Virus record (IMG/VR): IMGVR_UViG_3300021185_001174
Coordinates: 56,811 to 120,810 of that record
DNA: 64,000 bases
From: a virus
Reading direction: 5' to 3' (one strand)
Within the stretch, counting starts at the first letter, position 1; each line of letters opens with the position of its first letter. The notes under the pieces are model-generated. The model was not told where the DNA came from. It worked only from the letters and a program-made list of their open reading frames with translations, and searched no databases. Of this stretch, positions 2,204 through 56,000 are shown one piece after another. Both the position numbers and the translations under genes were made by a program.

Positions 2204-3466
2204 TTATTTTACTTTAGCGGCTAAGTCTTTATCTGCCTTACCCCATGTTCCTGATGATTTGGTTACAAAAGAATTGACTCTTGCTAACCCCCATTGTGTT
2301 GGATTAGTTCCTGGCCTATGGCCTGTTCTCCAAGCCGCAAATCCTCTATCAAATACTTTTCTTAATATGGCTAATGGCATACCTGACTTATCTGCTTTCT
2401 TTTTAAGAGCATCATCAGCCTTACCTTCATTAACTACATAATCTTCAAAACTTAAATGTTTGGCCATTTCTCCGTACATATCTTTATATTTCTTAGTATG
2501 TTTTGATGGCTTTGTTTTTGCTCTTGCATCTCCAGGAGCTGGTTTATATGCGGCTGGATTATTATCATCCTTTTCAGCACCCTTCTTAAAGTGGGCTTTT
2601 CTTTTGGCTGATGTTGACTTTGCAAGACCAGAGTAATAGTTAGTACCCTCAGCTTGTTCTACTTGTTCCAACCAGACTTTCTTATTACCCTTAGGGAAAG
2701 CTACTGTAAGATAATTCGCACCTTTAGTGATAATCTTACCCTTCTCTTGATTTTCTTTTAGTCTAACTGTATCACCAACATTAAACAAGTCACCTAAAAT
2801 AAACTGTTCTCTTGTTTCTGATACAGTCGGTAGTTCTATATGAGACCTAAAGCTTTTCTCTTCTTTAAGGCCCATCCCTTTTCTCACTGCATTAAATAAC
2901 TCAGCTGAACCAGTATAACCACTTGGAAGACCACTAGAAAATGTTTGTAAATCCCCTTCTGCGGCCGCTGCTCTCATTTTAGAGGCTGACATTCCTGTTA
3001 CACCTTCTGCATCTGGGTCTCTTTGCCCTGCAGAGAGTACTTTAATAGTTCCTTCAAATTGATAGAAGCCATGTCTTGCCTGAACACCATTATATTTGTT
3101 TAGTAAGATTTCAAATTCTTTTACTCTATCTGAACCTGCAACCATTGACATCTTAGTAAAACCTTGGTCATATAACTTAGTTGCGATTTCAATTATAGTA
3201 CGCACGTCGCCGTCTGCCATGATACTTCTGGCATGTCTAGGAAACATTTTTCTTAGGAACTTAATCTTGTCTTTAAATTTAAGAGGATTCTTTTTAGGGT
3301 CTTGGGATTGTGATGCGTATATTCTATATGCACCTCCACGTGATACCTTTTTAAGAGTTTCAAAAAGTTTTTCGTGGCCTGTAGTCGGCGGATTAAATCT
3401 ACCAAATACTACGGTTATTTCTTTTGATGCTTCGACTATATAGTCGCTAAAGTTTTTGACTTTCAT
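2204..3466 (-). CDS. NMNAT/cytidylyltransferase-fold nucleotidyltransferase with DUF5824-like C-terminus
   Basis: Residues 16-165 form a HIGH-type nucleotidyltransferase domain. GRFNPPTTGHEKL at 22-34 carries the (T/H)xGH ATP-binding motif, and GMSASKMR at 158-165 corresponds to the ISSTxxR motif of NMN adenylyltransferase and related enzymes. VAGSDR at 109-114 fits the intermediate nucleotide-contact loop. A small beta-rich segment (VGDTVRLKENQEKGKI) follows around residue 230. The C-terminus, with AAWRTGHRPGTNPTQWGLAR, resembles DUF5824 of cyanophage proteins. The first residues, MKVKNFSDYIVEA, resemble a capsid-targeting leader with an IVE|A cut site. The substrate is unknown; NMN, nicotinamide riboside and CTP-dependent reactions are all possible. 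Confidence 0.8.
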   Translation of the reverse strand: MKVKNFSDYIVEASKEITVVFGRFNPPTTGHEKLFETLKKVSRGGAYRIYASQSQDPKKNPLKFKDKIKFLRKMFPRHARSIMADGDVRTIIEIATKLYDQGFTKMSMVAGSDRVKEFEILLNKYNGVQARHGFYQFEGTIKVLSAGQRDPDAEGVTGMSASKMRAAAAEGDLQTFSSGLPSGYTGSAELFNAVRKGMGLKEEKSFRSHIELPTVSETREQFILGDLFNVGDTVRLKENQEKGKIITKGANYLTVAFPKGNKKVWLEQVEQAEGTNYYSGLAKSTSAKRKAHFKKGAEKDDNNPAAYKPAPGDARAKTKPSKHTKKYKDMYGEMAKHLSFEDYVVNEGKADDALKKKADKSGMPLAILRKVFDRGFAAWRTGHRPGTNPTQWGLARVNSFVTKSSGTWGKADKDLAAKVK

Positions 3467-3483
3467 TTATCCCTGGTTCCCAT

Positions 3484-4728: not shown

Positions 4729-6185
4729 TTATATAACCTCTTAAAGTCTTCCGTCATCATTGCATTAAAATTAGGTGCACTTGAAAAGTTGCCTTTATAT
4801 CTTAATATAATATTACATACTGCAACTGGGCCAATGAATAAAGTAAACTTTAAATTGGCGGCTCCAGAGCCTGGGTCAAATGCTTGTTTTGCACCTGGAG
4901 TATATTTCATTAATGGTTTGCCTTGAGAAAATAAATCATCTAGTTTACTTGATACTGAATCAATGTCTTTATACTCTCCGCCTTCTACTACAACACCTTT
5001 CTTAGGGCCGTAATCTCCAACGCCTGTAACTAGTGCAAAATCGAAATTAACTTTTTGTAATTCTTTTAAGTCGGACTTAAATATTAATTGAACTAGAATA
5101 TTTGAGAATAAGTCTGACTTGGATAATATTGTTTCACCCATCATTTTAAATAATGTTCTTTTACCTTTTAATACTCTATTAATAAGGTCATTGGGAATTC
5201 TATTAACATACTTTTTCCAGTTCTTAGTATTTACTGGATTCTTGTTAAGGTCATCAAATAAGTCATCAGACATCATATCAGGATATCTTTTTCTTAGTCT
5301 CTGAGCCAGTTTAATTACATGCACATAAAATCTACCTGCATCTAATTCTACATCTTCTTTTAATTTTTTAAGTTTCGGTTCATTAAGTAGCTTTGTAAAT
5401 GATTTATTAATAAGGGTTGGGTCTTCTTCTGTAACCCTTTTCTTTTTCTTTAAAGATACTCCTAGAAATTTATTACCTTTCTTAATAATAAAGTCAGATG
5501 AATTAAAATCTTGCATTCCATATTTTGACATTTGGAATTGTTTTACATCTTTATCCCATGACTGACCAGTAAGATAAACCATATCAGCATTACCATATCC
5601 TGCGTCAATAATAACATTAGCGGCCGATACTGCCTTACATAAATTTGGATAATCTCCTTCAAGAGAATCCACTTGACTCTGTTTATAACCTTTAACTTTC
5701 TTTAATTGAGCTCTTACCAATTGAATCATTGCATCCATTTCATCAGAATTAGTAATTTTATGTTTTGATGGGAAGAGACATAATGCAGCAGTCATAAGCT
5801 CATGAGGGTCATCACCTAAAGAACTACGGCCACCCATTGGTCTAGCATTTACATAGATTGCTTTATCCATATCTTTATGTTTAAAGTAATAATCTTTTTC
5901 TGCTCTGGCACCTGATATCTTAATAAGTTCTAAATTTGGTTCTTTTTCAATAATTTCTCTAGCGAGTGTAGAGAATGTTCTTCTGTTCTTATCTGGCATT
6001 AATTGAGAAATACCAATCTTCTTTGAATTTGATTTACCAGACCTGAGGTCTAATTCAACTTCAGTATCTACAGATGAAATTGCATCATCTATGGCCTGTA
6101 CCAACTTTACTGCATTCAGATTATCGTCAGTAGTTGAAAGAGTATCGAGTTCCTCTGTCATAAAACTGTTTTTAAATCTTATCAT
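4725..6185 (-). CDS. Putative PD-(D/E)XK-like nuclease-fold protein, 486 aa
   Basis: An uncharacterised protein of a type seen in marine T4-like phages. DDPHELMTAALCLF (125-138), then SSDFIIKKGNKFLGVSLKKKK (229-249) give an E129 / D231 / S244-x-K246 pattern. This is compatible with the PD-(D/E)XK nuclease core in which Ser replaces Glu, so the nuclease idea is an inference. The first residues MIRFKNSFMTEE resemble the kinase leader and T4 capsid-targeting leaders. It is the first gene of the late block and is preceded by TATAAATA at 6256-6263 and an early-type promoter at 6214-6242. It overlaps the ligase-like gene by 4 nt. Confidence 0.55.
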   Translation of the reverse strand: MIRFKNSFMTEELDTLSTTDDNLNAVKLVQAIDDAISSVDTEVELDLRSGKSNSKKIGISQLMPDKNRRTFSTLAREIIEKEPNLELIKISGARAEKDYYFKHKDMDKAIYVNARPMGGRSSLGDDPHELMTAALCLFPSKHKITNSDEMDAMIQLVRAQLKKVKGYKQSQVDSLEGDYPNLCKAVSAANVIIDAGYGNADMVYLTGQSWDKDVKQFQMSKYGMQDFNSSDFIIKKGNKFLGVSLKKKKRVTEEDPTLINKSFTKLLNEPKLKKLKEDVELDAGRFYVHVIKLAQRLRKRYPDMMSDDLFDDLNKNPVNTKNWKKYVNRIPNDLINRVLKGKRTLFKMMGETILSKSDLFSNILVQLIFKSDLKELQKVNFDFALVTGVGDYGPKKGVVVEGGEYKDIDSVSSKLDDLFSQGKPLMKYTPGAKQAFDPGSGAANLKFTLFIGPVAVCNIILRYKGNFSSAPNFNAMMTEDFKRLYK

Positions 6186-12679: not shown

Positions 12680-12939
12680 TATCTTTTTCTCCTGCCGTGT
12701 TGCGTCTGTTCTTGCATACGCTGTTGTTTTCTTGAACGTGCGATGGCTTCGGCCTTCTTACGCTTTCTCTTTGCAGTTGGTTTCTCATAGAACTCCTTCC
12801 TGCGTACATCCTGCAGAGTACCAGCCCTCTCAACTGCTTTTCTAAACTTTCTTAGAGCAACGTCAAACGGCATTGGTTTCTGTGGTCTTTTATCCTTAGG
12901 ATTTCTTGGTTTCCTAGGGGTTAAATCTATTGATGGCAT
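12679..12939 (-). CDS. rpsU: Ribosomal protein bS21 homologue
   Basis: The core from about residue 23 ([18 protein letters not shown]) through [16 protein letters not shown] is the bS21 sequence pattern; the protein is very basic and 86 aa long. A 22-residue proline- and lysine-rich extension precedes the core. The AGGAG before the first ATG supports the longer form. bS21 sits next to the mRNA-anti-SD helix of the 30S subunit, so the phage copy could replace host bS21 and bias initiation. Phage-encoded bS21 is known from metagenomic and pelagiphage genomes. Here it leads the uvsX-gp41-thyX operon behind an early promoter. Confidence 0.92.
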
Positions 12940-14767: not shown

Positions 14768-15274
14768 CTATTTATAAAATATATGATTGTCAATAGTAAC
14801 AACTTCTGTTAGATATGGTGCCCAGTAAGGTGATACAAAGTCTGCATGATACCATAGAGAGCCACTTGTAATGTCTGGCATTTTTCCAGATATAACTAAG
14901 TCTGCGATATGTAACGATTCCATCCATGTAGTTGAATCTGTAGGTTCATCCGACTTACCATCGCAGTACCAACTGAACTGACATTTATTTCTAATAGGAA
15001 CCATATTACCTTTCCAGTTCTCTCTTAATTTAGCTTGATATACTACATCACATATAGTACTAGGAAACTGTGCATCATTTGACCTATTAACTGCCACATT
15101 GGCAACTGCAACTCTTCCAGCAAATGGTTGATTGGCTGATTCAAAATAAATGTTTTGAGCTAGACAATATCTTTCTCCGTTTTCATCAGAAGCAGCAAGT
15201 GTTGGTACTAATAGAATTAAACATACTATTGCCGCAATCCATAAACTTATATTTCCGTAGTTGGGTGATTTCAT
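14768..15274 (-). CDS. Cell-wall hydrolase (SleB/CwlJ-like), likely endolysin
   Basis: Residues 36-168 match the Hydrolase_2 type: CLAQNIYFESANQPFAGR, VAVNRSNDAQFPSTICDVVYQ and CQFSWYCDG are characteristic. E44 in YFESANQ is the likely catalytic Glu. The N-terminus (about 10-28, SLWIAAIVCLILLVPTLAA) is a signal peptide or signal-anchor, so the protein would reach the periplasm without a holin pore. It probably cuts peptidoglycan at lysis. It overlaps the epimerase gene by 4 nt (ATGA). Confidence 0.85.
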   Translation of the reverse strand: MKSPNYGNISLWIAAIVCLILLVPTLAASDENGERYCLAQNIYFESANQPFAGRVAVANVAVNRSNDAQFPSTICDVVYQAKLRENWKGNMVPIRNKCQFSWYCDGKSDEPTDSTTWMESLHIADLVISGKMPDITSGSLWYHADFVSPYWAPYLTEVVTIDNHIFYK

Positions 15275-16122
15275 AATTTCTCCATTATATATTTTTGTAA
15301 AGTATTCTTTGGTTTCCAGCCTAAGTCAATTACCTTTGCTGTCTTAAGTTCTCCATTTAATCTATTACCTGCTTTCTCTGGTAGCATTTCTGGTTGAACT
15401 TTAAGATATGAAACTAAATCTAGTATTGAATGTTGTTCTGGTGAACCAATACCATAGTTATCTCCACTACCTTTAAATGCGGCAAGTATAATACCCTCTA
15501 CAATATCATCAACGTGTGTAAAGTTTCTTACTTGAACACCTGGTGATGTAACAGGTAAAGTGGTTGCACCATCTTTGACCATCTTAAGGAACTTACCAAC
15601 TACTGTTGCGTATTGTCCTTCATTGATTTCATTATCTCCATAGACATTATAGAAGTAAACTATACTGTAATCTAAGCCGAACCATTCTGAATAGTTCTTT
15701 AGTAATTCAGTATTCTGAGCTTTAGTATATGCGTATGGGGAAGCGGCTGATGTATTAGTGGCAAACTTAGTAGATGAACCAGAATAGATTACTTTGGCAT
15801 CCTGATGTTTGGCAAACTTTAGAACTTCTGGGAAGTGTCTTAGGTTATAATCTATTACTTTATCAAAGTCATTAAACGATTGTTCTACTCTTGCATATTC
15901 GCCAAAGTGAAATATATAATCAAAGGTTTGTTCTTGATGTTGTAATGCACCAAATAAGTCCATCGGAGTACCATAGAGATACCAACATCCATCGTGTCTA
16001 TTTGACATCTGACTTGAGTGTCCGTTATCTATTGATACTACTTGATGACCTTCTGATAATAATCTTTTAATTAGATTAGAACCAATAAATCCTTCTCCGC
16101 CTGTTACTAGTATTTTGCTCAT
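15271..16122 (-). CDS. NAD-dependent sugar epimerase/dehydratase (extended SDR)
   Basis: MSKILVTGGEGFIGSNLIKR is the Rossmann GxxGxxG motif. The catalytic region is SGSSTKF around 115 with YAYTKAQ (YxxxK) near 130, as in UDP-glucose 4-epimerase-like enzymes. At 283 aa it is a little short. It has its own early promoter (16147-16175). It lies beside UDP-glucose dehydrogenase, so it may act on UDP-glucuronate or a related nucleotide sugar. Confidence 0.87.
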   Translation of the reverse strand: MSKILVTGGEGFIGSNLIKRLLSEGHQVVSIDNGHSSQMSNRHDGCWYLYGTPMDLFGALQHQEQTFDYIFHFGEYARVEQSFNDFDKVIDYNLRHFPEVLKFAKHQDAKVIYSGSSTKFATNTSAASPYAYTKAQNTELLKNYSEWFGLDYSIVYFYNVYGDNEINEGQYATVVGKFLKMVKDGATTLPVTSPGVQVRNFTHVDDIVEGIILAAFKGSGDNYGIGSPEQHSILDLVSYLKVQPEMLPEKAGNRLNGELKTAKVIDLGWKPKNTLQKYIMEKL

Positions 16123-16146
16123 AGTTTTACCTTGTTTAATAGATAT

Positions 16147-16175
16147 ATTATACTACACTTTTAAGTGAAAGTAAA
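16147..16175 (-). promoter_or_regulatory. Early-type promoter of the epimerase-hydrolase-GroES operon
   Basis: Minus-strand TTTACT (16170-16175), 17 nt, TATAAT (16147-16152). Confidence 0.78.
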
Positions 16176-16181
16176 GTCTTT

Positions 16182-17369
16182 TTAATTATTATTGTATATA
16201 TCTCTGGTGTATACTTTTGACTCAATGATATCATCAGACATTCTATTGGTCACGATTATGTCAGATAGCTCGTTGAACTTATCTATGTCATTTTCTATAA
16301 CACAACCTAAAAACTTATCATCTTCAATCATAGGCTCATGAATAATAACTTTGACTCCAGCCTTGGTAAGTCTATCAACAACACCTTGTATGGCTGAACA
16401 CCTATAATTATCTGAACCAGATTTCATGGCTAGTCTATAGATTCCTACTACTGATACATTATCTTTCTGTTGTATCATTCTTGCAATCCAATCTTTTCTG
16501 TTCTCATTCGCGTATACAATACCTTGGATAATCTTGGTAGGAATATGATGCTTTCTAAAATTGGCAAGTAGTTGTTTTGTATCTTTAGGAAAACAGTATC
16601 CGCCATAACCAAATGATGGGTTACTATAACCTCTACCGATACGTGAATCTCCAGTAACACCTTCTATAATAGAATAGGCGTTCATATTATTTGCCTCTGC
16701 GTACATATCTAATTCATTAAAAAATGATACTCTCATCGCGAGGTATGTATTGGCAAAGAGTTTAATTGATTCTGCCTCTTTAGTTCCACATAGATTAACT
16801 GGTGGCGATGGGAAGTTTGGTATAATACATTCATTAATAAGTTTGGCAAACGATTCACCATTGTAACCAATATCACCTACTACAATTCTTTCTGGTCGTA
16901 GACAGTCTCTTAACGCTGTGCCTTCTCTTAAGAATTCTGGAGAGAATATAACTGACTTCGTATACTTCTCTTGCATATCATCAATGAATCCTACAGGTAT
17001 AGTTGACTTAACTACTATTGTGGTTGAACTTTTATCCCAGTCAGCATTATATTCTACTGCATCTCTAATACAACCTTCAACAGTATCTGTGTTAAAGTAG
17101 TTTGTTGCTTCATCATAATCAGTTGGTGTTGCGATGACCACCCAGTCAGCATCTGAATATGCAGTCTTCTTATCCATGGTCGCCTTAAGTGATAACTTGC
17201 CTTCAGCTAGTTCATCCGATATATCTTTATCTTCAATGGTTGATACGCCAAGGTTAATTGAAGCTACTCTTAACTTATCAATGTCTAAAATTGTTACATC
17301 ATGTTTCTTGGCAAACATTACTGCGTTAGCCATACCAACGTAACCCGAACCTACTACTGTTATTTTCAT
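16182..17369 (-). CDS. UDP-glucose 6-dehydrogenase-like nucleotide-sugar dehydrogenase
   Basis: ITVVGSGYVGMANAVMFA (3-20) is the NAD-binding site. SPEFLREGTALRDCLRPERI is the substrate-loop signature, and SFGYGGYCFPKDTKQL carries the catalytic cysteine. The three-domain length (395 aa) is normal. It oxidises UDP-glucose (or a similar sugar) to the uronic acid with two NAD. It overlaps the primase-like gene by 4 nt and stands upstream of the epimerase, so both may supply a modified UDP-sugar. Confidence 0.92.
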   Translation of the reverse strand: MKITVVGSGYVGMANAVMFAKKHDVTILDIDKLRVASINLGVSTIEDKDISDELAEGKLSLKATMDKKTAYSDADWVVIATPTDYDEATNYFNTDTVEGCIRDAVEYNADWDKSSTTIVVKSTIPVGFIDDMQEKYTKSVIFSPEFLREGTALRDCLRPERIVVGDIGYNGESFAKLINECIIPNFPSPPVNLCGTKEAESIKLFANTYLAMRVSFFNELDMYAEANNMNAYSIIEGVTGDSRIGRGYSNPSFGYGGYCFPKDTKQLLANFRKHHIPTKIIQGIVYANENRKDWIARMIQQKDNVSVVGIYRLAMKSGSDNYRCSAIQGVVDRLTKAGVKVIIHEPMIEDDKFLGCVIENDIDKFNELSDIIVTNRMSDDIIESKVYTRDIYNNN

Positions 17370-18292
17370 AAACTATTCCTATGTACAAATTCTAAGGCTC
17401 TTTCTGCCTCTTTATCTAATGGTCTTTTATTATACCAATTGCCTGTATCTAAATCTAATTCTCTACATAAGTAGGCGATTTCTTTAGAGGTAATTGGATA
17501 CTTGTTACTTATAGCGTTACCTGCTAGTGCCACCATAATCTGATACATTTTATGATACCAGCCACTGCCTGTAATCGTTCTATATTCTTGTTCTAATTTC
17601 TTTGGAAAAAACGGACAGTCTTTATAACCAGTCCATGATACCTTAGTATTAGTTAGTGAAGATTTCATGTGAGCCATCATGGCCTCTTGCATCTTCTTAG
17701 GTAATTTATCAAAGAATGAATTCCCACTTTTTTCTATATACTCATGGCGAGACATAATATCATGGGGAGATATTGGCTCACCTTGTTTAGTAAAGATAAA
17801 GTTATGCGCATTAGCATACTTGCCAGGGATGTAATACATTCTTGATAAATCTTTGGTCTGGATATCACCCATTTCACCAAGTTCTTTGTTGAGGGCATAC
17901 CAGAAGTGTTTAATATTGTCTTTGTTAACAAACTCTGTAAGGGGAAAGACAAGTCTAAACTTTGGCAAGTCTTTTGTGGATGAAGCAGTAGAGTAACAGA
18001 TATAATGATAATCTTTACATTTCTTGTCCAAGAACTCTTGTAAGTCCTCGGTGCAATCATCTACATCTATGGCACACCAGCCACCCCAACCTTGTACATT
18101 ATCATTCTTTCTTGTAGTACCAGCAGAATAAAAAGCAGGAGACATTAGTTCTGCAGACTTTTTATCTTTTCTGGGTTTCTCGGAAAGTCGATATAGTATT
18201 GTTTCAAAGTCTTTGAATGTGGGTAAATCTATACTCTTGTTAGTCTGAACATCAAAGAGTGATTCAAATAGTGTGCCTGATACTTTATCCAT
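17366..18292 (-). CDS. Archaeo-eukaryotic primase-like (PrimPol-type) protein, 308 aa
   Basis: Residues 65-157 show the AEP primase pattern: AIDVDD (74-79) as the hDhD motif, CYSTASST (99-106) with PKFRLVFPL (110-118) as the second motif, and TKDLSRMYYIPGKY (147-160) as the third. The C-terminus (about 210-308) is helical, like the PriCT-type tails of phage primases. It would lay down RNA or DNA primers. A TOPRIM primase like T4 gp61 is not seen in this window, so this may be a replacement or an extra enzyme. Assignment is by motif reading only. Confidence 0.65.
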   Translation of the reverse strand: MDKVSGTLFESLFDVQTNKSIDLPTFKDFETILYRLSEKPRKDKKSAELMSPAFYSAGTTRKNDNVQGWGGWCAIDVDDCTEDLQEFLDKKCKDYHYICYSTASSTKDLPKFRLVFPLTEFVNKDNIKHFWYALNKELGEMGDIQTKDLSRMYYIPGKYANAHNFIFTKQGEPISPHDIMSRHEYIEKSGNSFFDKLPKKMQEAMMAHMKSSLTNTKVSWTGYKDCPFFPKKLEQEYRTITGSGWYHKMYQIMVALAGNAISNKYPITSKEIAYLCRELDLDTGNWYNKRPLDKEAERALEFVHRNSL

Positions 18293-18301
18293 AATAGGTA
18301 T

Positions 18302-18330
18302 ATTATACTACATTTTAATCTGATTGTAAA
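18302..18330 (-). promoter_or_regulatory. Early-type promoter of the primase-like/UDP-sugar dehydrogenase genes
   Basis: Minus-strand TTTACA (18325-18330), 17 nt, TATAAT (18302-18307). Confidence 0.8.
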
Positions 18331-19226
18331 GGGGTTTTTAAAATTAATTTTAAATTTTTATAGTCGGTGAAAAATCTTCGTTTGTGTTGTAACTTCCAAC
18401 CCTTATGTGAACCTTCTACTAACTCAACAACTCTAAAGTTCTTAGGCCAGACCTTAACAAATCTCTCATAGAGTTTGCGTCTCTTCTCTTTACTTTCCCA
18501 GTGGTTCATATTACCACCTTTTTGAGTCGCAGTACCAGGAGCATCAAATAGGATATGAGAGAAAGAAATTGTACACCACTTGTTTTCTAAGGCTGTGAGT
18601 GTATAATGCCAGTCCTCTACACCTGATAGATTTTCTGGCCAAGTAACATCAGCTTCATTCTTAATGAGAACACAGCTGTATGCGAGTTGGTTTACTTTAA
18701 CTGGATATCTTTTACTAAAAGCAAATGCTGGACTTGTAAGGCCTGATATGGCAACATTAGAGAATAGACCAATTGTCTTTTCTACCACGGCCAAGGCATT
18801 GATACCTTTAACCACAACATTCTTATCATTCATTCTGATTCTAAACTTTTTAATATCATCATCCATTTGCCAGTGATATGTATCACCTTGGGCTTTAGAG
18901 TATTCTTTGATAAAGTTTCTGACATATGAAATGCCTCTATCGTTAGCTTCAATATTAACTAATATATCTTTATCGTGATATTTGGAATACTCTTCATAAT
19001 CTTGAGGTTCAACAAACAACTTATATGGTATATTTTCTTCTAATAATGTTTTAGGAGTAAATGCACAATCTGCTCTTCCCTTACTTGGGACATATATAGG
19101 ATGAGATACATCTGTATAATTTTCATGTTCTGATATAAGGTCAGAAACATATGTTACTATATCAAAGTCAGCTTCATCACTAAATAAAGGATTGTGCTCT
19201 ACTATATATTTGTTTAAGTTTGTCAT
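18315..19226 (-). CDS. TET/JBP-associated-type glycosyltransferase (TAGT-like), copy A
   Basis: HPIYVPSKGRADCAFTPKTL (42-61), FVEPQDYEEY (71-80), GISYVRNFI and WQMDDDIKKF (119-128) follow the pattern I know for the TAGT glycosyltransferase family, a GT-A fold with a DxD-like DDD motif (122-124). Such enzymes are associated with glycosylation of modified DNA bases in phages. The end contains SHKGWKLQHKRRFF, a basic tail. It shares one base with the upstream 119-aa gene and has a paralogue two genes up. The acceptor here is not known. Confidence 0.75.
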   Translation of the reverse strand: MTNLNKYIVEHNPLFSDEADFDIVTYVSDLISEHENYTDVSHPIYVPSKGRADCAFTPKTLLEENIPYKLFVEPQDYEEYSKYHDKDILVNIEANDRGISYVRNFIKEYSKAQGDTYHWQMDDDIKKFRIRMNDKNVVVKGINALAVVEKTIGLFSNVAISGLTSPAFAFSKRYPVKVNQLAYSCVLIKNEADVTWPENLSGVEDWHYTLTALENKWCTISFSHILFDAPGTATQKGGNMNHWESKEKRRKLYERFVKVWPKNFRVVELVEGSHKGWKLQHKRRFFTDYKNLKLILKTPLQSD

Positions 19227-40485: not shown

Positions 40486-41619
40486 TTATGAATAGTTTTT
40501 ACTAATAGCTTGTGTGTATCTAGCCATTGAATCTGAGATATCAGCAGTTTCTACTGAGTCATTTCCAATGAGACTTTTTACTTCGTCAGCCTTCTCATTA
40601 ACTTCCTTTGTGAAGTATGATTCTTTAACAGTTTTAACTTTCATTTCAAAAGTTTCTTTGTTATCAAAATCAATATCTTCAACTAAAGATGCTAACTTCT
40701 CAGCTTCAGTTTCAGCTAAACCTAAAGAATTTTCTCTGATTACATTTGCTCTTTCAAGTTCTTGAACGGACTCATGTAGTCTGATATTATCTTCTGTTGA
40801 TTTATTAAGGTTCCCTTCTAGTTCAGCTACTTGCTCTGATAAATCATCAACAAGGTCTACTTTACCTTCTGGAACATCAATGTAATGTTCTGTGAACACT
40901 TTTTGAAGTGAAGTCATGAACTCTTCAGCAATTTCAGTCCTAAGACCATTAACTACTGATACTTCATTTTCTTTCATCCAATTTTCAACAACGTATGAAA
41001 GGTAAGAATCTACCTTCTCTACTAGCTGAGATTGAACTTGAGAAACTTCTTCTTCAAGATTTTGCACGTATTCGGCTTCTAATCTATCAACTTCTTCAGT
41101 CAACTTAGATGTTAATACTGCTTCGAAAATAGCTCCGGCCTTTCCTCTGAATCCTTCAGAAAGGGTTGCTTCTTCTAACACTAGTGCATCTAGGTCTTCA
41201 TCAAAATCAATTGATTCGACTTTTGCTTTAACCTTAGGTTCATCTTTCGTTTTACCTTTGACTGCAGCAATTGCTTTGCCAACGGAGCCATCATCTTCGG
41301 CCTCGTCAACTTTTGCCATTTTAGCGTAAAGTTTTTGTGCATCTTCTTTACGTGCTTTCTTCAACATTTCTACTGCGGCTTGAATAACACCTGCTTTAGT
41401 TTTTGGAACAGAAAGTTCTGGAGCGGCTTCTTTAACCTCTTCTTCTTCTTCCTCTTCTTCTTCTTTTACATCTTCATCTTCCGATTCAGATTTAGCAGCT
41501 GCCTTCTCTTCAAGAGATTCCTCGTCTAAATTCTCATTTTCAACGAGCTCTTCTTCTTGAGTAAGCTCTTCACTAGCAATGTCTTCAACAAGCTCTTCTA
41601 CTTTATTGTCGATTGACAT
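40486..41619 (-). CDS. 22: Prohead core scaffold (T4 gp22)
   Basis: A highly acidic, coiled-coil protein: the first 65 residues are mostly Glu/Asp, and helical repeats such as VEELVEDIASEELTQEE and NLNKSTEDNIRLHESVQELE follow. T4 gp22 is cut to small peptides by gp21; IASEE, LVEN and similar sites are plentiful. Position between gp21 and gp23 is the T4 order. At 377 aa it is longer than T4 gp22 (269 aa). Confidence 0.9.
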   Translation of the reverse strand: MSIDNKVEELVEDIASEELTQEEELVENENLDEESLEEKAAAKSESEDEDVKEEEEEEEEEVKEAAPELSVPKTKAGVIQAAVEMLKKARKEDAQKLYAKMAKVDEAEDDGSVGKAIAAVKGKTKDEPKVKAKVESIDFDEDLDALVLEEATLSEGFRGKAGAIFEAVLTSKLTEEVDRLEAEYVQNLEEEVSQVQSQLVEKVDSYLSYVVENWMKENEVSVVNGLRTEIAEEFMTSLQKVFTEHYIDVPEGKVDLVDDLSEQVAELEGNLNKSTEDNIRLHESVQELERANVIRENSLGLAETEAEKLASLVEDIDFDNKETFEMKVKTVKESYFTKEVNEKADEVKSLIGNDSVETADISDSMARYTQAISKNYS

Positions 41620-41628
41620 AACATTCTC

Positions 41629-42288
41629 CTATATTTTAGAGTTTAGTTTAGAGAGGAAATTCTTAAAAGCTCTGATTTCTACATCCGCAGAATTCATATT
41701 TTTAGCTTCTTTTATTTCAGTCTCAATTTCTTCAATTTCTTGTGCCACAAGGATACCATTATTCCAAACCCAATCTACGCCTTCCATGATGCCATCTACG
41801 AAAGCACCAGGAGCCGAAGGGTCTTGAACAATGTCAACGGTTGCAAGCATAAAATCCTTACCAACATGTTGAGTACCATTCTTCTGTACAAGAGTTCCCA
41901 TACCACGACTTGAAACACCAAGCCTAACACCACCTTCTAATAATCCTTCAACTATTTTTCCCATAGGGGTCTTAAGTATTGATGCTTTTCCCACAACGTC
42001 ATCTCCCTCCCAACGGAGTTCAGTGATTTTGTGTGAAACTTTATCAAGATTGATAGTCGGCCCATCTGGGTGATTTAATTCACCTACCGCTCTACCAGTC
42101 TTTACTTGTTCTGTTATATACTTATTGACAGCGGACTCTAATACCTTCTTGTCATAAGTTCTTTTATTTCTGTTCTGTCTATTGGCCTGCATGAAGACAC
42201 CTTCTATAACGTATCCTTTCGAACCGTCTTTACGTGCTTCTTGAATAACCTCTAGGTCTGTTTCTAAATATTCGGCTATAAGCTTCAT
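41629..42288 (-). CDS. 21: Prohead protease (T4 gp21)
   Basis: A herpes-type serine protease fold that matures the head. VIEGVFMQANRQNRNKRTYD (28-47), GELNHPDG (69-76, catalytic His73) and RLGVSSRGMG (122-131, catalytic Ser126/127) are the key blocks. DIVQDPSAPGAFVD near 152-165 carries another conserved acidic site. Length (219 aa) matches T4 (212 aa). It overlaps the 78-aa gene by 4 nt. Confidence 0.95.
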   Translation of the reverse strand: MKLIAEYLETDLEVIQEARKDGSKGYVIEGVFMQANRQNRNKRTYDKKVLESAVNKYITEQVKTGRAVGELNHPDGPTINLDKVSHKITELRWEGDDVVGKASILKTPMGKIVEGLLEGGVRLGVSSRGMGTLVQKNGTQHVGKDFMLATVDIVQDPSAPGAFVDGIMEGVDWVWNNGILVAQEIEEIETEIKEAKNMNSADVEIRAFKNFLSKLNSKI

Positions 42289-44843: not shown

Positions 44844-46568
44844 TTATTGTCCAGCTACTTCGGAGAATTCAACTCCGGTTCTGGTTGCTACAAAATTCAA
44901 TGTAATGAAGTTAATTGACCTAGTAGGTTTAACGTATATGTCAGCCACAAATCTATTACCATCTACTACTGCAGAATTGTTATTTGTTTCATCACATACT
45001 ACTTTAAAGTCTGTTACGCCTCTTCTTCCTTTTACATCCCTCATAAATGGTTCTACCAAGTTTCTAAACTGAGCTCTAGTAAATTCATCGTTGAATTCAA
45101 ATAGTTGTGCCTTAGCAGCAGTACTAATTGCTTTCTCTAATACGATAAATAATCTTCTTACATTGATTCTATCGAATGCTGAAGCTCTAGAAGCCAAAGT
45201 TTTATCTCCAAATAGTACTGTTCCCTGTCCAGGTAGTGATACTATAGGATTTACTTTACCTACATAAAGTGAATCTCTTTGTGCCGCAGTTGGGTTATAT
45301 GCTAACTTAGTAATACCTCTTAATTGCCCACGATTTACACCAGCTGGTGAGAACCATGCATCTGCAACTTGGTCTGTATTAACTGCAAGACCTGCAACTA
45401 AACCAGAAGCACCAATCCATTCATATTGGTCATGGTATTTATTATAAACATATACTGCTCCACCATCTAGTGTTGCGTATGAAGAGCTAGTTAAACTATC
45501 CTTATATGCTAATACATTAGTTACAGCTGTTGCTGAAGCAATACCCTTGGTATCTGCTACTGGAGGTGAGATGAAAGCCATACAATCTTTTCTGGCTTCA
45601 CAAACACTGATTAGTTTTTCACCAATAACATCTGCACCATTTGCATCTGGAATAGCAAAAAGAAGTGATACATCAACTGTATCCACATCTTGGAATAATC
45701 CAAGACCTGCTGTTACTTGAGCAGCTGCCACAGTTCCATCAACACCACCTGATAGTGAATCTACTAATACTGTTGCAGAAGTTTGATATTTACCAGCTGC
45801 TATTGCAGGGTCTGATGAAATAGGTAAAAGTTTAACCTCAGCAATAGTTTTTCCTGAACGGGTATGTTCAGCCGCTGCAGCACCAAACCATATCCACTGG
45901 GATTCTCTATTAATTACTTCTTTATAGTAGAGTGAAGAACCGTTTACATCTTTTGCATCTAATGCTTGAGATAAGAAACCAAAAGTTTCTAATACAGTAC
46001 CTTGAACACCACTAATTAAACCATCTTTGTCAACTACTACTACGTGCAGTTCATCATTTACACCTGCACCATCTTGACTTACAGCATAGTCTGAAGTAGC
46101 CGGAGCCCCTTCAAATAATCCTTTATAGTCAGCAAAGGTTGAGTTAGTATATGCTGAAGAACTAGATACTACAAGTACTTTTAAGCCATTACCTAAAACA
46201 CCTGGGCATCTTGCGTGCCAGTCGCCGGTTAGTGTTGAACCAAGATAGTCATCTTCGTTTTCTATTAATGTCGCACTACTTTCTGTAGTACATGCGTTTT
46301 TTGCCGATGAATCGACAACTCTAATTACCTTTAATGCGTTTCCATACTTTAAGAATGATGCCGCTGTTAAAAAGTGATTAGCGTTTGCTGGAGTAGGTGT
46401 AGAAAAGATACTGCCCATTTCATCTTCCGAAGAAACTAGTGTTATCTTATTTACAGGACCCCAATTAAATTCTCCCACAAATCCACCAATAGATGATGAA
46501 ACTGCTGGGACAACATTTGTTGCGTCAATTTCTTTGAATTGAACGCCGGGTGAGACTTGAAATGCCAT
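44844..46568 (-). CDS. 18: Tail sheath protein (T4 gp18)
   Basis: The contractile sheath. The N-terminus MAFQVSPGVQFKEIDATNVV with FVGEFNWGPVNKITLVSSED and the C-terminal FVEPFMRDVKGRRGVTDFKV-like block are characteristic. AWFSPAGVNRGQLRGITKL is a conserved sheath motif. Length (574 aa) is a little below T4 (659 aa), the difference falling in the variable middle domains. A late box is 64 nt upstream. Confidence 0.96.
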   Translation of the reverse strand: MAFQVSPGVQFKEIDATNVVPAVSSSIGGFVGEFNWGPVNKITLVSSEDEMGSIFSTPTPANANHFLTAASFLKYGNALKVIRVVDSSAKNACTTESSATLIENEDDYLGSTLTGDWHARCPGVLGNGLKVLVVSSSSAYTNSTFADYKGLFEGAPATSDYAVSQDGAGVNDELHVVVVDKDGLISGVQGTVLETFGFLSQALDAKDVNGSSLYYKEVINRESQWIWFGAAAAEHTRSGKTIAEVKLLPISSDPAIAAGKYQTSATVLVDSLSGGVDGTVAAAQVTAGLGLFQDVDTVDVSLLFAIPDANGADVIGEKLISVCEARKDCMAFISPPVADTKGIASATAVTNVLAYKDSLTSSSYATLDGGAVYVYNKYHDQYEWIGASGLVAGLAVNTDQVADAWFSPAGVNRGQLRGITKLAYNPTAAQRDSLYVGKVNPIVSLPGQGTVLFGDKTLASRASAFDRINVRRLFIVLEKAISTAAKAQLFEFNDEFTRAQFRNLVEPFMRDVKGRRGVTDFKVVCDETNNNSAVVDGNRFVADIYVKPTRSINFITLNFVATRTGVEFSEVAGQ

Positions 46569-46631: not shown

Positions 46632-46639
46632 TATTTATA
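46632..46639 (-). promoter_or_regulatory. T4-type late promoter box TATAAATA (gp18-gp19)
   Basis: An exact minus-strand match, 64 nt before the sheath ATG. Confidence 0.7.
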
Positions 46640-46651
46640 AATAACATTATC

Positions 46652-48094
46652 CTAGTGGTCATTCTTATCATTAGGTGCCGTAACTTCACTCAACATGAAT
46701 TGTCTATTAGGATTAACTGCCACCTTAAACTTAGTAAGTAATATTCTATTTACTAACATTTCGGATGCAGTATCTTTAAGAGTTAGTCCTAATTCTACTT
46801 TATATTTTTTATTATTAAAGATTAGATTGTGTTCAATAATTGGTCTTACATCAAAGAGTTTTCTAGCTCTCCTTGCTTCGGAAACACCTATTACTTCACT
46901 TCTAAACTTCTTCCCATTCTTAACCCATTCTACAAAATCACCATCAGCTTCAAGTTTATCAACATGAAACATAGTTGCCGATGCAGAGTTACCTGTATCA
47001 AATTTTGCCCTGATTGGGTCTTTTTCTAAACCTTCTAATATGACTGTTTCAATAAATCCAGCCTCTTGTCTCATAATAGGTCTTCTATTTAAATCACTTG
47101 AGAAGAAATCTATAATTAAACCTACCATATCTTTATCTGTTTTCTTACCCAATGATGAACCACTATTAGGGTCATATGCATTAAAGTGTGACCTAATGCC
47201 AGGTGAACCATTTACTTCTAATAAGTAGTAATCATCTTTTACCTTACAATGGTCAACTCCACAATACCAAGCCCCTGTCGACCTAGCCGCGGCTACTACT
47301 AATTCTTTTTCTTCATTAGATAATGTATATGGTCTTGTCTTTGCACCTAAGTGGACGTTATTTCTAAACTCGCCGTTATCTTCTTCTCTTATTCTCTCTG
47401 CGGCACCTATAATATTACCACCCACAACAAGAGTTCTAATATCTGATTTAATATCTAAGAATTGTTGTAAGAGTAAGTCTGCATCATATTTCCATAAAGA
47501 TTGAGCTACGGATACTAGTGATGCCATATCATTTACCTTAGATACTCCAACACCTTGTGTTCCCGTTAAAGTTTTTATGATTACTGGAAACTTACCACCA
47601 ACTCTTTTATGAGCATCTTCTATAGACTTTATATTATTTAAAATAGAAGTTTTGGGGGTGGGTAAATTATTTCTTTCTAATAGTAATGTATTGGCCATCT
47701 TATTATCACAAGCCAACATTGACTCTAAATCATTTACTAAAAAGAAACCAATACTTTGTAATGAAGATACAATTGCTTGAGCAGATAAACTTTCTAGTGC
47801 TCCAGCCCTAACAAAGATAATAGTATTATGTGTTTCTAGTTCTATGGAATTATCTTTACCGTCAGCATTCTGAATAGTTACACTACCAATCTCTACATCA
47901 TTTTGAGATATCCATGCTTCATCAACATAGATTTGGTCGAATGCTATTTTCTTGGCATTACATATCTCTTCGGCAATCTCTGCAAAAGTTCCTTCTCCAG
48001 ATTCCTTCTTACCTAAAACGGCAACGTGTAGATTATCCTGCTTTATTGGCTCTTCAAATTCTTCTACTACAAAATAATCGTTAAAATTTTTCAT
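46652..48094 (-). CDS. RimK-like ATP-grasp ligase fused to RimB/DUF785-like retropepsin domain, 480 aa
   Basis: Residues 20-340 form an ATP-grasp ligase of the RimK glutamate-ligase type: NKMANTLLLERNNLPTPKT (131-149), PVIIKTLTGTQGVGV (170-184) and LLEVNGSPGIRSH (291-303). Residues 345-470 resemble the RimB/DUF785 aspartic-peptidase-like family: RAKFDTGNSASATMF (362-376, DTG motif), SEARRARKLFDVRP and a C-terminal NRILLTKF. In bacteria, separate RimK and RimB add and trim glutamates on ribosomal protein S6. I chose the ATG at 48094, which forms TAATG with the gp17 stop. It starts MKNFNDYFVVEEFEE, like a capsid-targeting leader. It lies between terminase and sheath. Confidence 0.8.
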   Translation of the reverse strand: MKNFNDYFVVEEFEEPIKQDNLHVAVLGKKESGEGTFAEIAEEICNAKKIAFDQIYVDEAWISQNDVEIGSVTIQNADGKDNSIELETHNTIIFVRAGALESLSAQAIVSSLQSIGFFLVNDLESMLACDNKMANTLLLERNNLPTPKTSILNNIKSIEDAHKRVGGKFPVIIKTLTGTQGVGVSKVNDMASLVSVAQSLWKYDADLLLQQFLDIKSDIRTLVVGGNIIGAAERIREEDNGEFRNNVHLGAKTRPYTLSNEEKELVVAAARSTGAWYCGVDHCKVKDDYYLLEVNGSPGIRSHFNAYDPNSGSSLGKKTDKDMVGLIIDFFSSDLNRRPIMRQEAGFIETVILEGLEKDPIRAKFDTGNSASATMFHVDKLEADGDFVEWVKNGKKFRSEVIGVSEARRARKLFDVRPIIEHNLIFNNKKYKVELGLTLKDTASEMLVNRILLTKFKVAVNPNRQFMLSEVTAPNDKNDH

Positions 48095-49704
48095 TAGTAT
48101 TGTTGCCCCTTCCATTTTTGTTCAAACCATACGTTACCATCACCATCACCGACACCTGCTGGAGTATCTTCTCCATCGTCAATGAATCCAAACGGAACCA
48201 TATCGTCCTGTATTTCTGCTAATCTTTCTTTATATAGCATGTTCTTTATATCTATATCAGTTATACCATTAAACACATCGGTTGATGTGAACCATGCGAA
48301 CATAACCAAATTCATCATTAAGTCATCATGGTTAGGAGCTATTGCTTGATAACTACTACCCTTAGAAACAAATGTACTCATTTCTATAATTGTCTGTGCG
48401 TCATATATAATCAACTTCTTCTGTTCTATTAAATCTTTTACTGTAGAACACCCAATACGTTTTACTCTTCTGGTCATTGTAGCACCAATTGCATTTGCCT
48501 TTAAAGAGGATTCAACAAACATATGTTCGTATTCTAAGTCATAATATAATCCATTACATACAACCGCACCTTGGTCATTACTTTCTATAACAACATAAGC
48601 TTCATTATATAAATTTGCATACTTATATATCATATCAGGCATTAACATTGGAGATATATTATTATCTCTGAATATTGCAACCTGTTCAAATACTGGAGTA
48701 GATACATCTATAATTGTAAAGGTAGAATAATCTTGTCCTCTCCCTTTACAAACATCTACTGTCATGATATAATTATGAGTAGGTATTGGGTCCTTATAGA
48801 TAAATATATTCTCTTTATATTTAATAGGGTCTATGGCTACTTGAGATAATAAATGATTCGCATCTATTAAAGTATTACCACGACCATGAAACGTATTACC
48901 GAACTCTTGCTCAAACTGTAGAGCAGAAGTATTTGAAATAGTTTCATCTTTCCACTTCTGGTCTCTCCCTGGTACGTCCCACCAATCTACTCTAAAGGGT
49001 TTATACTCATTTGTTCCTTGAGATGCCCCTTCCCATATCTTGTGATATATATTACCAATACCATTAGCTGTAGAGGTAATAATAACCTTCGTATCTTTAC
49101 CAGAAGATACCACTGGATAAGTTGATGTATAGAACTGTGCATCATTCTCTACAAAAGCAAACTCATCTAAGAACAATAAGTTAATAGAAAGACCACGAAT
49201 GGATGAACCACTAGTTGCCGCTGCCATTATCTTAGAGTTATTACTAAACTCAATGGAGCCTTTATTCAAAGCCTTACAGCCAGGTTGTAAGAAAAAGGGT
49301 AAGTTCTCTAACATTAGAGTCACCCTTGCTAACATTTCCCTTGCTGTTGCACCCTTATTTGCAAGTACTGCAATAGTTTTCTCTGGATGAAAACACGCAT
49401 ACCATAGTAAATAAGCAACAGATGAAATAGATTTACCACTCTGTCTACATGCCAATACTATATTAAACCTATTCTTATTAAAATGGTTAAACATCTTTTC
49501 TTGGTAATCATATAAATCAAATGGAACAAGTCCCTCATCAAGGGATATAACTTTTAAGTATTTACGAGCAAAGTAAGCAGGTTCTGCCATACACTTGGCA
49601 TACTCTAATACTTCATCTTTAGTAAACTGAGTTTCTACACCATCACGTTTTACTGAAGGGTTACCTAGATAACCAAATTCGTTATTCTTTATTCTCTGCA
49701 TCAA
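48094..49704 (-). CDS. 17: Large terminase / packaging ATPase-nuclease (T4 gp17)
   Basis: Pumps DNA into the head and cuts concatemers. Walker A is ACRQSGKS (85-92), Walker B LLFLDEFAFV near 175, and the coupling motif ITSTANG near 206. The RNase H-like nuclease begins at TVDVCKGRGQDYSTF near 315 with the conserved Asp, and a late Asp lies in NHDDLMMNLV near 465. Length (536 aa) is slightly below T4 (610 aa). It overlaps gp16 by 23 nt. Confidence 0.97.
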   Translation of the reverse strand: MMQRIKNNEFGYLGNPSVKRDGVETQFTKDEVLEYAKCMAEPAYFARKYLKVISLDEGLVPFDLYDYQEKMFNHFNKNRFNIVLACRQSGKSISSVAYLLWYACFHPEKTIAVLANKGATAREMLARVTLMLENLPFFLQPGCKALNKGSIEFSNNSKIMAAATSGSSIRGLSINLLFLDEFAFVENDAQFYTSTYPVVSSGKDTKVIITSTANGIGNIYHKIWEGASQGTNEYKPFRVDWWDVPGRDQKWKDETISNTSALQFEQEFGNTFHGRGNTLIDANHLLSQVAIDPIKYKENIFIYKDPIPTHNYIMTVDVCKGRGQDYSTFTIIDVSTPVFEQVAIFRDNNISPMLMPDMIYKYANLYNEAYVVIESNDQGAVVCNGLYYDLEYEHMFVESSLKANAIGATMTRRVKRIGCSTVKDLIEQKKLIIYDAQTIIEMSTFVSKGSSYQAIAPNHDDLMMNLVMFAWFTSTDVFNGITDIDIKNMLYKERLAEIQDDMVPFGFIDDGEDTPAGVGDGDGNVWFEQKWKGQQY

Positions 49705-53054: not shown

Positions 53055-56000
53055 CTATTTCTCCGATTTACTTTCGAGGGTTTTTATTCTTTCCTCTAAT
53101 CTATTTATAAGGGCTTGTTGCTCTTTCACAGCTTCTACTAATAAAGCTGTTATATTACCATAGTCTACCCCTAGTGACTCTGATTTTAAAACCCCGTCTT
53201 CTTCTATTCTATTATTATGTACTATCTCTGGTACTACTTCTTGAACTTCTTGAGCAATGAAACCAATACTTTCTTTATCATTTCTTTTCCATTGGAAACT
53301 TACACCATTTAGATTTTGTACTTTTTCTAATGCTCCTTCAAGGGGTTTTATATTTTTCTTTAATTTTCTATCTGAAGATGTTGTAGTTGAATATGCAATT
53401 ACGTTTCCATCTGCATGAAAATCTCCACTAGACATATTAAGATGGAATTCTCCAGTATTACTACCTGATGAACCTTGACCAAAGGTAAGATAATCATAAC
53501 CAGAAGAGGCCTCTACGGCTTTAATCATTCTATAACCGCCACAATATAGTTCCCAAGTGTCGGCTGCAGAAAATGATGTATATGTATCAGTATCACCTTT
53601 ATGAATAACTTTATTAGATACCGATAAATCACCACCAGTACTAATACCCCAACTATCTGCCGTTACATTATTACCTCTAAAGCGAATCGTGTCACCTGAA
53701 GTATTACCAAGGTATGTATTTGAAGCATAGATGTAACAGTTACCTACATCAGATTTAATATAGAAATCACCACCTGTATAGGCTGTACGAGTACCAGAGT
53801 CATTGTAAAAATAACCTGTACTTCTATCTACTGCAAAATATGTACGAGCGGCCCCTATATATCCGTCAGTAGTAATAGTAAATCTTTTAGTACCATTACC
53901 ACTTCCACTTGTAAATTGTAAATTACCTGCAGTATTTGTTTGCGCGTCTGCTGACTCATAAATTTGCCATAGGTTTCCGCCGTTCCATGCTAGTCCTTCA
54001 CTTGCACCTGGGTCATTAAATGTTATTTTATTTGCACCAGTAATGGTACCATTTGTCATTGCAATTGTTTGGCCATTCATTGTTAACTGGCCAGACATTG
54101 TTCCACCAGATTTTTGTAGAGCACCATTGGCAGTAGTAGTAGTACTAGTTAAGACAGCATTTCGTGCTGCGATATCTACTCCATCTACTGTTCCTGCAAC
54201 AGTAACATTACCATTTGATCCACTTACACTAAACTTAGCTCCACTAGAGCCAACTTGAAAGTTTCCATCGGTTCTTAATACTCCAGCACCACAATATATA
54301 CCACTAGTAAAATCAACGTCAGGATTTAATCTTAGCCATGAGTCATTAAATCTGACTATTTCTTTCCCATCACCTTCTATTTTACTACCATTGAACTTTC
54401 CATCACCTCTAACATGGATATTTCCCGCAGAATCCCAACGAAGTGAGTACTGATTACTGCTTATGTTTGTAGCAAGTTCTCCACCTTGATGTCCCTGAAG
54501 TCTTGGTCCATCAACAGTTGACCCAGAATAACCTGTACTCACTTTTACAAGATGATGATTAGTGTCACCAAGACTAAGCATTTGTCCTGATGATAATGCC
54601 AGTCTGCTTGTATGAGTTTTAACCCCTGACATTGACTGGTCGCCTGTAGTTCGAATTACAGTAGAATCAACCGCAATGTCATTGGCATTTGCTGTGATGC
54701 CTGAACCACCAATTACGTTGAGTGTTACTCCCCCTGAAGTACCTCCACCAGTTAAACCAGTACCTGCACCAACTGATGTAATATCACCAGCTGTCGGAGT
54801 ATTTGTAAAATTATTATAATCTAAATAGTATGAACCTTCTTGATTATCTAACTTATCAGCATCTAATCCTGAACCAGCACCATCCGAAGTAGAAGTCCAT
54901 ATCTCTCTCCAGCCCGGACTATAACTAGCACCCTGATTGTTATATACGAACATCTTGCCAGCAGAGCCGCCAGTATTTGGAGCAATAACTAATCCTGTAA
55001 TATTGCCTTGAACATTATCAGTTGAATTATCAGTCCACCATAACCATGATGTTCCAGCAAGTTCCGTAAGCCTACCCGCATCTGTTAAGTTACCATTACC
55101 AGCATATGACCAACTTGTTTTATGAGCAGTTAACTTAGAATCAAATGCGTCCTTGCCTAGTGCTTCTGTAAGTAGTGCAGATGTTGTTGTGCTTGTATAG
55201 TTTGATTCGCCAGTATGTCTAAAGTGGTCTAATGATGTCTTGGCATTTAAAGCACTTTGTAATCCGTCAACATTTGAGACTACATGATTATGTGAGTCAT
55301 CGGCAACTGCTGCTGTAAGTGTAAAGTTAGCCGAACCATCAAAAGAAACACTTCCACTTAAATCTCCACTTAATGTCAATGTTCTTGCTGTAGTCCACTT
55401 ATCAGCATTTGGGTGGTAGGCTTCTGTAAATAATCTATGACTAAATGCATATCCTATATTAGTCGAAGAATCAAGCTCCAGTGCGTACGGAGTCTCCCAA
55501 CCACCAGAATCATCTCTATCTGGAAGAATATAAAATCTATTACCGTTTACGTGAAGCCAAAAATCATCGCCATTAGTATCATTAAACTTCATCTGCGGCG
55601 ATGTACCAGAGATAGTTAACTGTCCAGTCATTGTTCCACCAGCTAGTGGTAGTTTATTAGTAATACTTGAGTCTGAAGCAGTTATAAATCCATAACTGTT
55701 ATTCCAGTTTGTATTACCATCTGTAATATAACCTGCACTTGCATGATTACCCCAACCGTATGCGGTATTCCAGTTAGTAGAGTTACCACCAGATGCAGTA
55801 ATGGTTGACGGAGTGTCTAATGCACCCGTCTCCATATTTATATTAAATTTAGTTGCGCCAGCCCATTTGTAAAGTATTTTGTCAGGATTGCCTTCATCAT
55901 AAAAAATACCATAGTTAGGATACTGGTCTCTGCTAATACCCCAGATAGTAGCATCAGGCGCACCAGTTGTGGCTCCATATACATTACCGCTGAAAGAAGT

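What the first reader, a model, noticed from the sequence alone, without database searches (positions are those of the whole stretch)
46652..48094. RimK-like ATP-grasp ligase fused to a RimB-like retropepsin domain, between terminase and tail sheath
One protein carries both a glutamate-ligase-type ATP-grasp domain and a DTG aspartic-peptidase-like domain. In bacteria the two activities add and trim poly-glutamate on ribosomal protein S6. Here the gene is inside the late structural operon, starts on the gp17 stop codon, and has a leader like a capsid-targeting sequence (MKNFNDYFVVEE). It may modify a virion protein or be delivered to modify host ribosomes, which would pair with the phage bS21.
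Basis: partly seen in the sequence, partly recalled or inferred. Interest (0 to 1): 0.8.

Follow-up and report, generated by a model that had tools for sequence, protein, structure and literature searches.

The report
Phage glutamate ligase-protease with packaging tag
A marine T4-like virus of bacteria carries one protein that looks able both to add glutamates to proteins and to cut them off again, and its front end looks like the tag by which T4 loads enzymes into its head, so it may be injected into the next host cell together with the viral DNA.

Summary
Window 46652-48094(-) is one 480-aa protein with a RimK-type ATP-grasp glutamate-ligase domain (Pfam RimK 5.8e-36; catalytic residues kept) and a C-terminal RimB/RloA-type retropepsin domain with invariant DTG (profile match to solved RloA2 5.8e-7; Foldseek 5.7e-6). 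It is the last gene of the late gp13-gp17 operon. The architecture is not new: Monier et al. 2008 reported phage RimK with C-terminal DUF785, with gp17/gp18 on such contigs, and a bacterial RimB-RimK hybrid of opposite order was assayed in 2025. What I add is the leader. Across the family the first 10-12 residues read M-x(2,4)-F-x-x-[FY]-[LI]-x-E, the register of the T4 capsid-targeting sequence and its gp21 cleavage site: 41 of 67 relatives against 8 of 689 other ORFs (p 9e-42). The window's own copy keeps the two aiming aromatics but has V-V-E in place of L/I-x-E. The phage carries the gp21 protease. A distant homologue of the same architecture was found in phage YerA41 virions by mass spectrometry. 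Best reading: an internal head protein, packaged and ejected like T4 Alt. Its substrate (host S6 or a phage protein) is not shown. New variant of a known kind.

The parts
46652..48094 (-). RimK-RimB-like fusion protein ('RimKB'), 480 aa
   Evidence: single full-length hit in own record
48062..48094 (-). Leader MKNFNDYFVVE: capsid-targeting-sequence-like, F4 and Y7 in T4 register; V-V-E where relatives have L/I-x-E; low-confidence (probably disordered) in the model
47189..47707 (-). RimK-like ATP-grasp domain aa 130-302; K132, K174, R234, D281, E293, N295 equal E. coli RimK K100, K141, R203, D248, E260, N262
46694..47059 (-). RimB/RloA-type retropepsin-like domain aa 346-467
46991..46999 (-). 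DTG catalytic motif (aa 366-368), invariant in 63 relatives
48094..49704 (-). gp17 terminase large subunit; its stop codon overlaps the RimKB start
44844..46568 (-). gp18 tail sheath, next gene downstream
41629..42288 (-). gp21 head maturation protease, the enzyme expected to cut the leader
   Evidence: 1.9e-77
40486..41619 (-). gp22 head scaffolding protein with a run of 9 glutamates (possible substrate, weak lead)
53102..53109 (-). TATAAATA, T4-late-promoter-like, upstream of the gp13-gp17-RimKB unit
   Evidence: 17 of 18 sites in the window on the coding strand
46632..46639 (-). TATAAATA between RimKB and gp18: the next late unit begins here
2204..3466 (-). Cytidyltransferase with the same kind of leader (MKVKNFSDYIVE|A); a putative cytidylyltransferase of cyanophage S-SM1 is a virion protein by mass spectrometry
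12733..12873 (-). Phage-encoded ribosomal protein bS21 (PF01165)

Best explanation
A packaged, ejected protein-glutamylation enzyme. Late in infection the gene is transcribed as the last gene of the gp13-gp17 unit. The N-terminal leader recruits the protein to the prohead core as the T4 capsid-targeting sequence does, and the phage's gp21 protease removes the leader after a (L/I/V)-x-E site near residue 11. The mature two-domain enzyme stays in the head and enters the next cell with the DNA. There the ATP-grasp domain ligates L-glutamate to protein carboxyl ends and the retropepsin domain trims or edits the tails and may stimulate the ligase, as free RimB does. The likeliest target is the host translation apparatus, bS6 first. 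Shown here: fusion, conserved catalytic residues, folds, leader conservation, operon, presence of gp21. Shown elsewhere: a homologue in YerA41 virions. Inferred: cleavage of this copy, ejection, activity, target (S6 about 0.35).
For: Leader M-x(2,4)-[FY]xx[FYW][LI]xE in 41/67 relatives against 8/689 other ORFs of the same contigs, p 8.8e-42, and in 21 of 41 clusters at 90% identity and 6 of 10 at 70%; after shuffling of the leader residues 0.08% match, against 77% observed among leaders with the aromatic pair. T4 IpI, an internal head protein, starts MKTFKEF; in T4 the first 10 residues suffice, residues 4 and 7 aim, 8 and 10 govern cutting, and gp21 cuts after L/I-x-E (PMC9026906). Mosig MQVQPFKNYLEE|A and the RimK-only Melnitz protein FSQFITE|E carry it too. 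gp21 is present. Some relatives that left the gp17-gp18 site lie among other MKTF../CTS-like genes and cytidyltransferase or DUF6267-type genes. Positive control: the window cytidyltransferase has this leader, and a putative cytidylyltransferase is a virion protein of S-SM1 (PMC3037559). YerA41 g112 'ribosomal protein modification protein', RimK then RimB like here over 94% of the query, is marked as found in particles by LC-MS/MS (PMC7354516). Catalytic residues. Folds.
Against: The window's own copy fails the strict pattern (F-V-V-E), although near relatives read FIVE|D and FIPE|E. YerA41's homologue lacks the leader, so its virion presence may have another cause, and that particle list also holds many replication enzymes that could be carry-over. 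A deep branch and Mosig keep the gene beside regA, clamp-loader and DNA polymerase genes, i.e. not in a late unit. Neither domain reaches the equivalog cut-offs for S6 ligase or RimB. Close relatives lack the gene at this site, so it is dispensable.
Confidence: 0.62

Rival explanations
1. Same packaging into the prohead, but the substrate is a phage head protein: the ligase or the protease acts on the acidic scaffold gp22 or another core protein during head maturation, and nothing functional needs to be ejected.
For: gp22 here has nine consecutive glutamates, the only glutamate run of 5 or more in the phage record. Runs of 6 or more occur in 14 of 27 relatives with a RimK gene between gp17 and gp18 and in 0 of 18 without. 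RimB cuts internal poly-glutamate (PMC11957791).
Against: The gene's presence changes only 2 or 3 times on the gp20 tree, so the association is not independent of kinship; half of the carriers have no long run; RimK-only variants at the same site also have runs. T4 matures its scaffold with gp21 alone.
Confidence: 0.15
2. An ordinary auxiliary gene acting only in the cell in which it is made: an intracellular glutamate ligase/peptidase that alters the host ribosome or makes poly-glutamate, the leader being an unrelated conserved N-terminal helix.
For: In Mosig and the deep branch the gene sits among replication genes beside regA. Cyanophage S-RIM8 RimK has no such leader. Monier et al. proposed translation control (PMC2530865).
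Against: The leader matches T4 capsid-targeting register and cut site in six of ten 70%-identity clusters; here the gene is in a late unit, too late for early takeover.
Confidence: 0.2
3. A degenerate or non-catalytic fusion retained as a structural part of the virion.
For: Homologue listed as 'structural protein' in YerA41 and GN1. In the retropepsin domain the usual Gly of the hydrophobic-Gly motif is Asn (LVNR).
Against: ATP-grasp lysines, Mg-binding D/E/N triad and DTG are invariant in 63 diverse relatives; no structural role is known to me for ATP-grasp enzymes.
Confidence: 0.05

Closest known systems
Marine phage RimK + C-terminal DUF785 in GOS contigs (Monier et al. 2008, PMC2530865)
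   Same: Same domain order, same neighbours (gp17, gp18; regA on others), phage-specific clade
   Different: That report did not recognise the retropepsin nature of DUF785, the capsid-targeting leader, or virion association
RimBK hybrid of Desulfotalea psychrophila (PMC11957791)
   Same: One chain with ligase and retropepsin; the hybrid's protease part cuts polyglutamylated RpsF
   Different: Opposite order (RimB at the N-terminus), cellular; the fusions are probably independent
RimK (E. coli / Pseudomonas), S6-L-glutamate ligase
   Same: Best solved-structure match (5zct 2.1e-20; 5zk6 RimK-RpsF); catalytic residues conserved
   Different: About 22% identity in the structural match, far below the equivalog cut-off; extra C-terminal domain and leader
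RloA/RloA2/RimB retropepsins (PMC12239564, PMC11957791)
   Same: DTG, fold, full-domain alignment
   Different: RloA proteins are secreted/periplasmic; phage domain is fused to a ligase, has LVNR for the L-L-G-R motif and sits below all family cut-offs
T4 internal head proteins IpI-IpIII and Alt
   Same: N-terminal capsid-targeting register and gp21 site; Alt is a packaged, ejected host-modifying enzyme
   Different: No sequence kinship beyond the leader; chemistry is glutamylation, not ADP-ribosylation; packaging not yet shown here

Membership tests
RimK-type ATP-grasp alpha-L-glutamate ligases | RimK ATP-grasp domain above curated score | tested here: met
   PF08443 124.3 bits against cut-off 21; TIGR00768 143.3 against 143.4, a hair below
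RimK-type ATP-grasp alpha-L-glutamate ligases | ATP-binding lysines and Mg-binding D/E/N triad | tested here: met
   K132, K174, D281, E293, N295 align with K100, K141, D248, E260, N262 and are invariant
S6--L-glutamate ligase (RimK sensu stricto) | Equivalog score | tested here: not met
   NF007764 86.5 bits against 331
S6--L-glutamate ligase (RimK sensu stricto) | Glutamylates bS6 C-terminus | not testable with these tools
   needs assay; host and its bS6 unknown
RimB/RloA retropepsin superfamily (DUF785) | DTG and domain-wide homology | tested here: met
   DTG invariant; 9g59 5.8e-7; Foldseek 9g58 5.7e-6; PF05618 in 47/63 relatives
RimB (equivalog) | NF052261 score | tested here: not met
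   20.3 bits against 200
RimBK hybrid | RimB domain N-terminal to RimK | tested here: not met
   order reversed
T4-type internal head proteins with a capsid-targeting sequence | Aromatic residues at positions 4 and 7 of the leader | tested here: met
   F4, Y7 in window; 54/67 relatives have the pair in this spacing
T4-type internal head proteins with a capsid-targeting sequence | gp21 site L/I-x-E ending the leader | tested here: inconclusive
   met in 41/67 relatives; window copy has V-V-E
T4-type internal head proteins with a capsid-targeting sequence | Found inside virions and ejected | not testable with these tools
   only a distant homologue, YerA41 g112, reported in particles

The most novel reading that the evidence does not exclude
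T4-like marine phages carry in their heads a glutamate ligase-retropepsin that is injected with the genome and reversibly glutamylates host ribosomal or other translation proteins before any phage gene is expressed: a virion-borne ribosome-modifying enzyme, the translational counterpart of T4 Alt.
Probability: 0.35. Interest if true: 0.8.

Novelty: new variant of a known kind. Interest (0 to 1): 0.62.

Why it matters
Hundreds of marine phage contigs carry this gene (over 400 matching stretches in IMG/VR) and its function has been open since 2008. The leader turns a vague 'may affect translation' into a testable claim: look in virions. If right, phages deliver a protein-modifying enzyme of a chemistry that I know of in no ejected phage enzyme, and the leader pattern gives a simple way to list other packaged enzymes in marine T4-like phages.

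Tried and rejected
Upstream start at 48115 (MEGATILMK..) rejected: not conserved, and the extension lies inside gp17. Close cellular origin: a scan of 84,980 species genomes gave only two archaeal MAG contigs (7.5 and 5.8 kb, possibly misbinned viral contigs; L114 even starts MKALNFREFISEE) and one remote stand-alone retropepsin. The pattern scan reaches rather close relatives only. Pairing with bS21: same genome, about 34 kb apart, no further link. Poly-Glu scaffold as substrate: enriched in carriers but not independent of kinship. Foldseek of the whole model lists only ATP-grasp proteins in its first 50 rows, so the C-terminus was modelled alone. My first leader test misfiled 14 relatives as controls; corrected with an HMM. 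Host bS6 C-terminus could not be examined: host unknown (nearest isolates Phage C48C1 and Melnitz, about 60% in gp20 and gp23). Literature searches for RimK as a virion or ejected protein, or for phage-induced S6 glutamylation, found nothing beyond the papers cited.

Full report
What is there. The ORF at 46652-48094(-) is real and intact: 480 aa, found once in its own 120,810-base viral record. Its ATG shares one base with the gp17 stop codon. TATAAATA late-promoter-like sites lie at 53102-53109 and 46632-46639, and 17 of the 18 sites in the window are on the coding strand (the total is only mildly above chance). This makes the gene the last of a gp13-gp17 late unit, with gp18 starting the next. 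PHROG profiles confirm gp16, gp17, gp18, gp19, gp20, gp21, gp22 and gp23 around it.

Ligase half. Pfam RimK covers aa 130-302 at 5.8e-36. Solved RimK structures are the best sequence and fold matches (1.8e-22; 1.1e-34 with the family profile; Foldseek 2.1e-20). K132, K174, R234, D281, E293 and N295 align with K100, K141, R203, D248, E260 and N262 of E. coli RimK and are invariant over 63 relatives down to about 45% identity. It just misses the RimK subfamily cut-off (143.3 against 143.4) and is far below the S6-ligase equivalog (86.5 against 331), with MptN scoring better. It is a RimK-family glutamate ligase whose acceptor cannot be named from sequence.

Protease half. The single sequence is marginal (PF05618 26.1 bits, cut-off 27), so I tested it as a family. 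47 of 63 relatives match PF05618. A profile of 50 C-termini finds only three solved chains, all retropepsin-like DUF785 proteins: 9g59 RloA2 5.8e-7, 2pma 7.7e-6, 9g58 RloA 5.4e-5. An AF2 model of the domain alone (pLDDT 82) matches the same three best and then Ddi1 and HIV/SIV proteases. DTG at 366-368 is invariant. The usual L-L-G-R near the end reads LVNR here. It is closer to RloA2 than to RimB and below all equivalog cut-offs.

Known before. Monier et al. 2008 found phage RimK homologues in marine contigs, some with DUF785 on the C-terminal side, on contigs with gp17, gp18 or regA (PMC2530865). Little et al. 2025 showed that RimB is a retropepsin that trims polyglutamylated RpsF, cuts internal poly-Glu and stimulates RimK, and that a bacterial RimBK hybrid of opposite order has protease activity (PMC11957791). 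The fusion itself is therefore not a discovery.

Distribution. Over 400 stretches in IMG/VR encode relatives. Where both neighbours are on the contig, the gene lies between gp17 and gp18 in 61 of 62 loci. Relatives with gp17 mostly 74-84% identical to the window have gp17 and gp18 directly adjacent with gaps of about 96-133 bases, and no copy elsewhere in the part of the record held; the site is an accessory slot. A few phages carry a RimK-only protein of about 356 aa in the same slot. A more distant branch and Mosig carry the fusion beside regA, clamp-loader and polymerase genes.

The leader. In T4 the first ten residues suffice for packaging, residues 4 and 7 aim, 8 and 10 govern processing, and gp21 cuts after L/I-x-E (PMC9026906); IpI starts MKTFKEF. 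Among the relatives the leader consensus is F-[NKT]-x-[FY]-[LI]-x-E, for example MEKFNEFLIEK, MENFKSFITEE, MKVPKFNEFIAEA. A strict pattern is met by 41 of 67 relatives and 8 of 689 other ORFs on the same contigs (p 8.8e-42; relatives are not independent, hence the cluster counts: 21 of 41 clusters at 90% and 6 of 10 at 70% identity hold it). Several of the eight others look like plausible head proteins. Shuffled leaders meet it in 0.08% of trials. The structure model leaves residues 1-16 at very low confidence, as expected of a removable leader. Several clades without the strict form have a variant ending in I-x-E or L-x-E (MKFKDYIDPPIVE|A, MKSISEYRTAILEEE). The window's own copy keeps F4 and Y7 but has V-V-E, so cutting of this copy is uncertain; in T4 targeting survives loss of processing.

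Support that such leaders mean virion proteins. In the window a cytidyltransferase gene starts MKVKNFSDYIVE|A; a putative cytidylyltransferase was found in virions of cyanophage S-SM1 (PMC3037559; orthology to the window gene is by annotation, not tested). Where the fusion has moved from gp17-gp18, contigs L022, L023 and L048 show it among MKTF../MLNF.. genes and, in L048, a cytidyltransferase-like gene. In YerA41 the homologue (94% coverage, same domain order) corresponds by gene order to g112, 'ribosomal protein modification protein', marked as detected in particles by LC-MS/MS. It has no such leader and the particle list is broad, so this supports virion association in general, not the leader mechanism.

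Mechanism. I hold that the enzyme is made late, brought into the prohead core, processed by gp21 and ejected with the DNA, and then edits glutamate tails on host proteins. Packaging about 0.65; ejection slightly lower; S6 as main target about 0.35. The rival that it acts on the phage scaffold gains some support from the Glu9 run in gp22 and the enrichment of such runs in carriers (14/27 against 0/18), but the tree shows only 2-3 changes of state, so this is a lead only.

Noticed in passing
window 2204-6185(-): Three adjacent ORFs (cytidyltransferase + DUF5824, DUF6267, unknown) start with leaders resembling capsid-targeting sequences (..IVE|A, ..LHE|A, ..FMTE|E); likely a set of packaged head proteins.
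   Followed up: partly
window 40486-41619(-): gp22 scaffold has nine consecutive glutamates; runs of 6 or more in 14/27 relatives with a RimK gene in the gp17-gp18 slot and 0/18 without, confounded by kinship.
   Followed up: yes
L130, L132, L183, L185, L193, L195: RimK-only variant (about 356 aa, no retropepsin domain) at the same gp17-gp18 slot, with a different leader (MKRKLV..).
   Followed up: partly
L022 2191-3183 and 5733-6230; L048 3115-4996: Small uncharacterised genes starting MKTFKQF, MKTFTAFLAE, MKTFRDFLE near RimKB: candidate internal head proteins.
   Followed up: no
L113, L114: Archaeal MAG contigs (Pacearchaeota, Woesearchaeota) with phage-type RimKB, possibly misbinned viral contigs.
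   Followed up: no
window 15271-19226(-): Sugar-nucleotide epimerase, UDP-glucose dehydrogenase and a TET-associated glycosyltransferase: possible DNA base glycosylation genes.
   Followed up: no
window, 18 sites: TATAAATA occurs 17 times on the coding strand and once on the other; a late-promoter map of this phage.
   Followed up: partly
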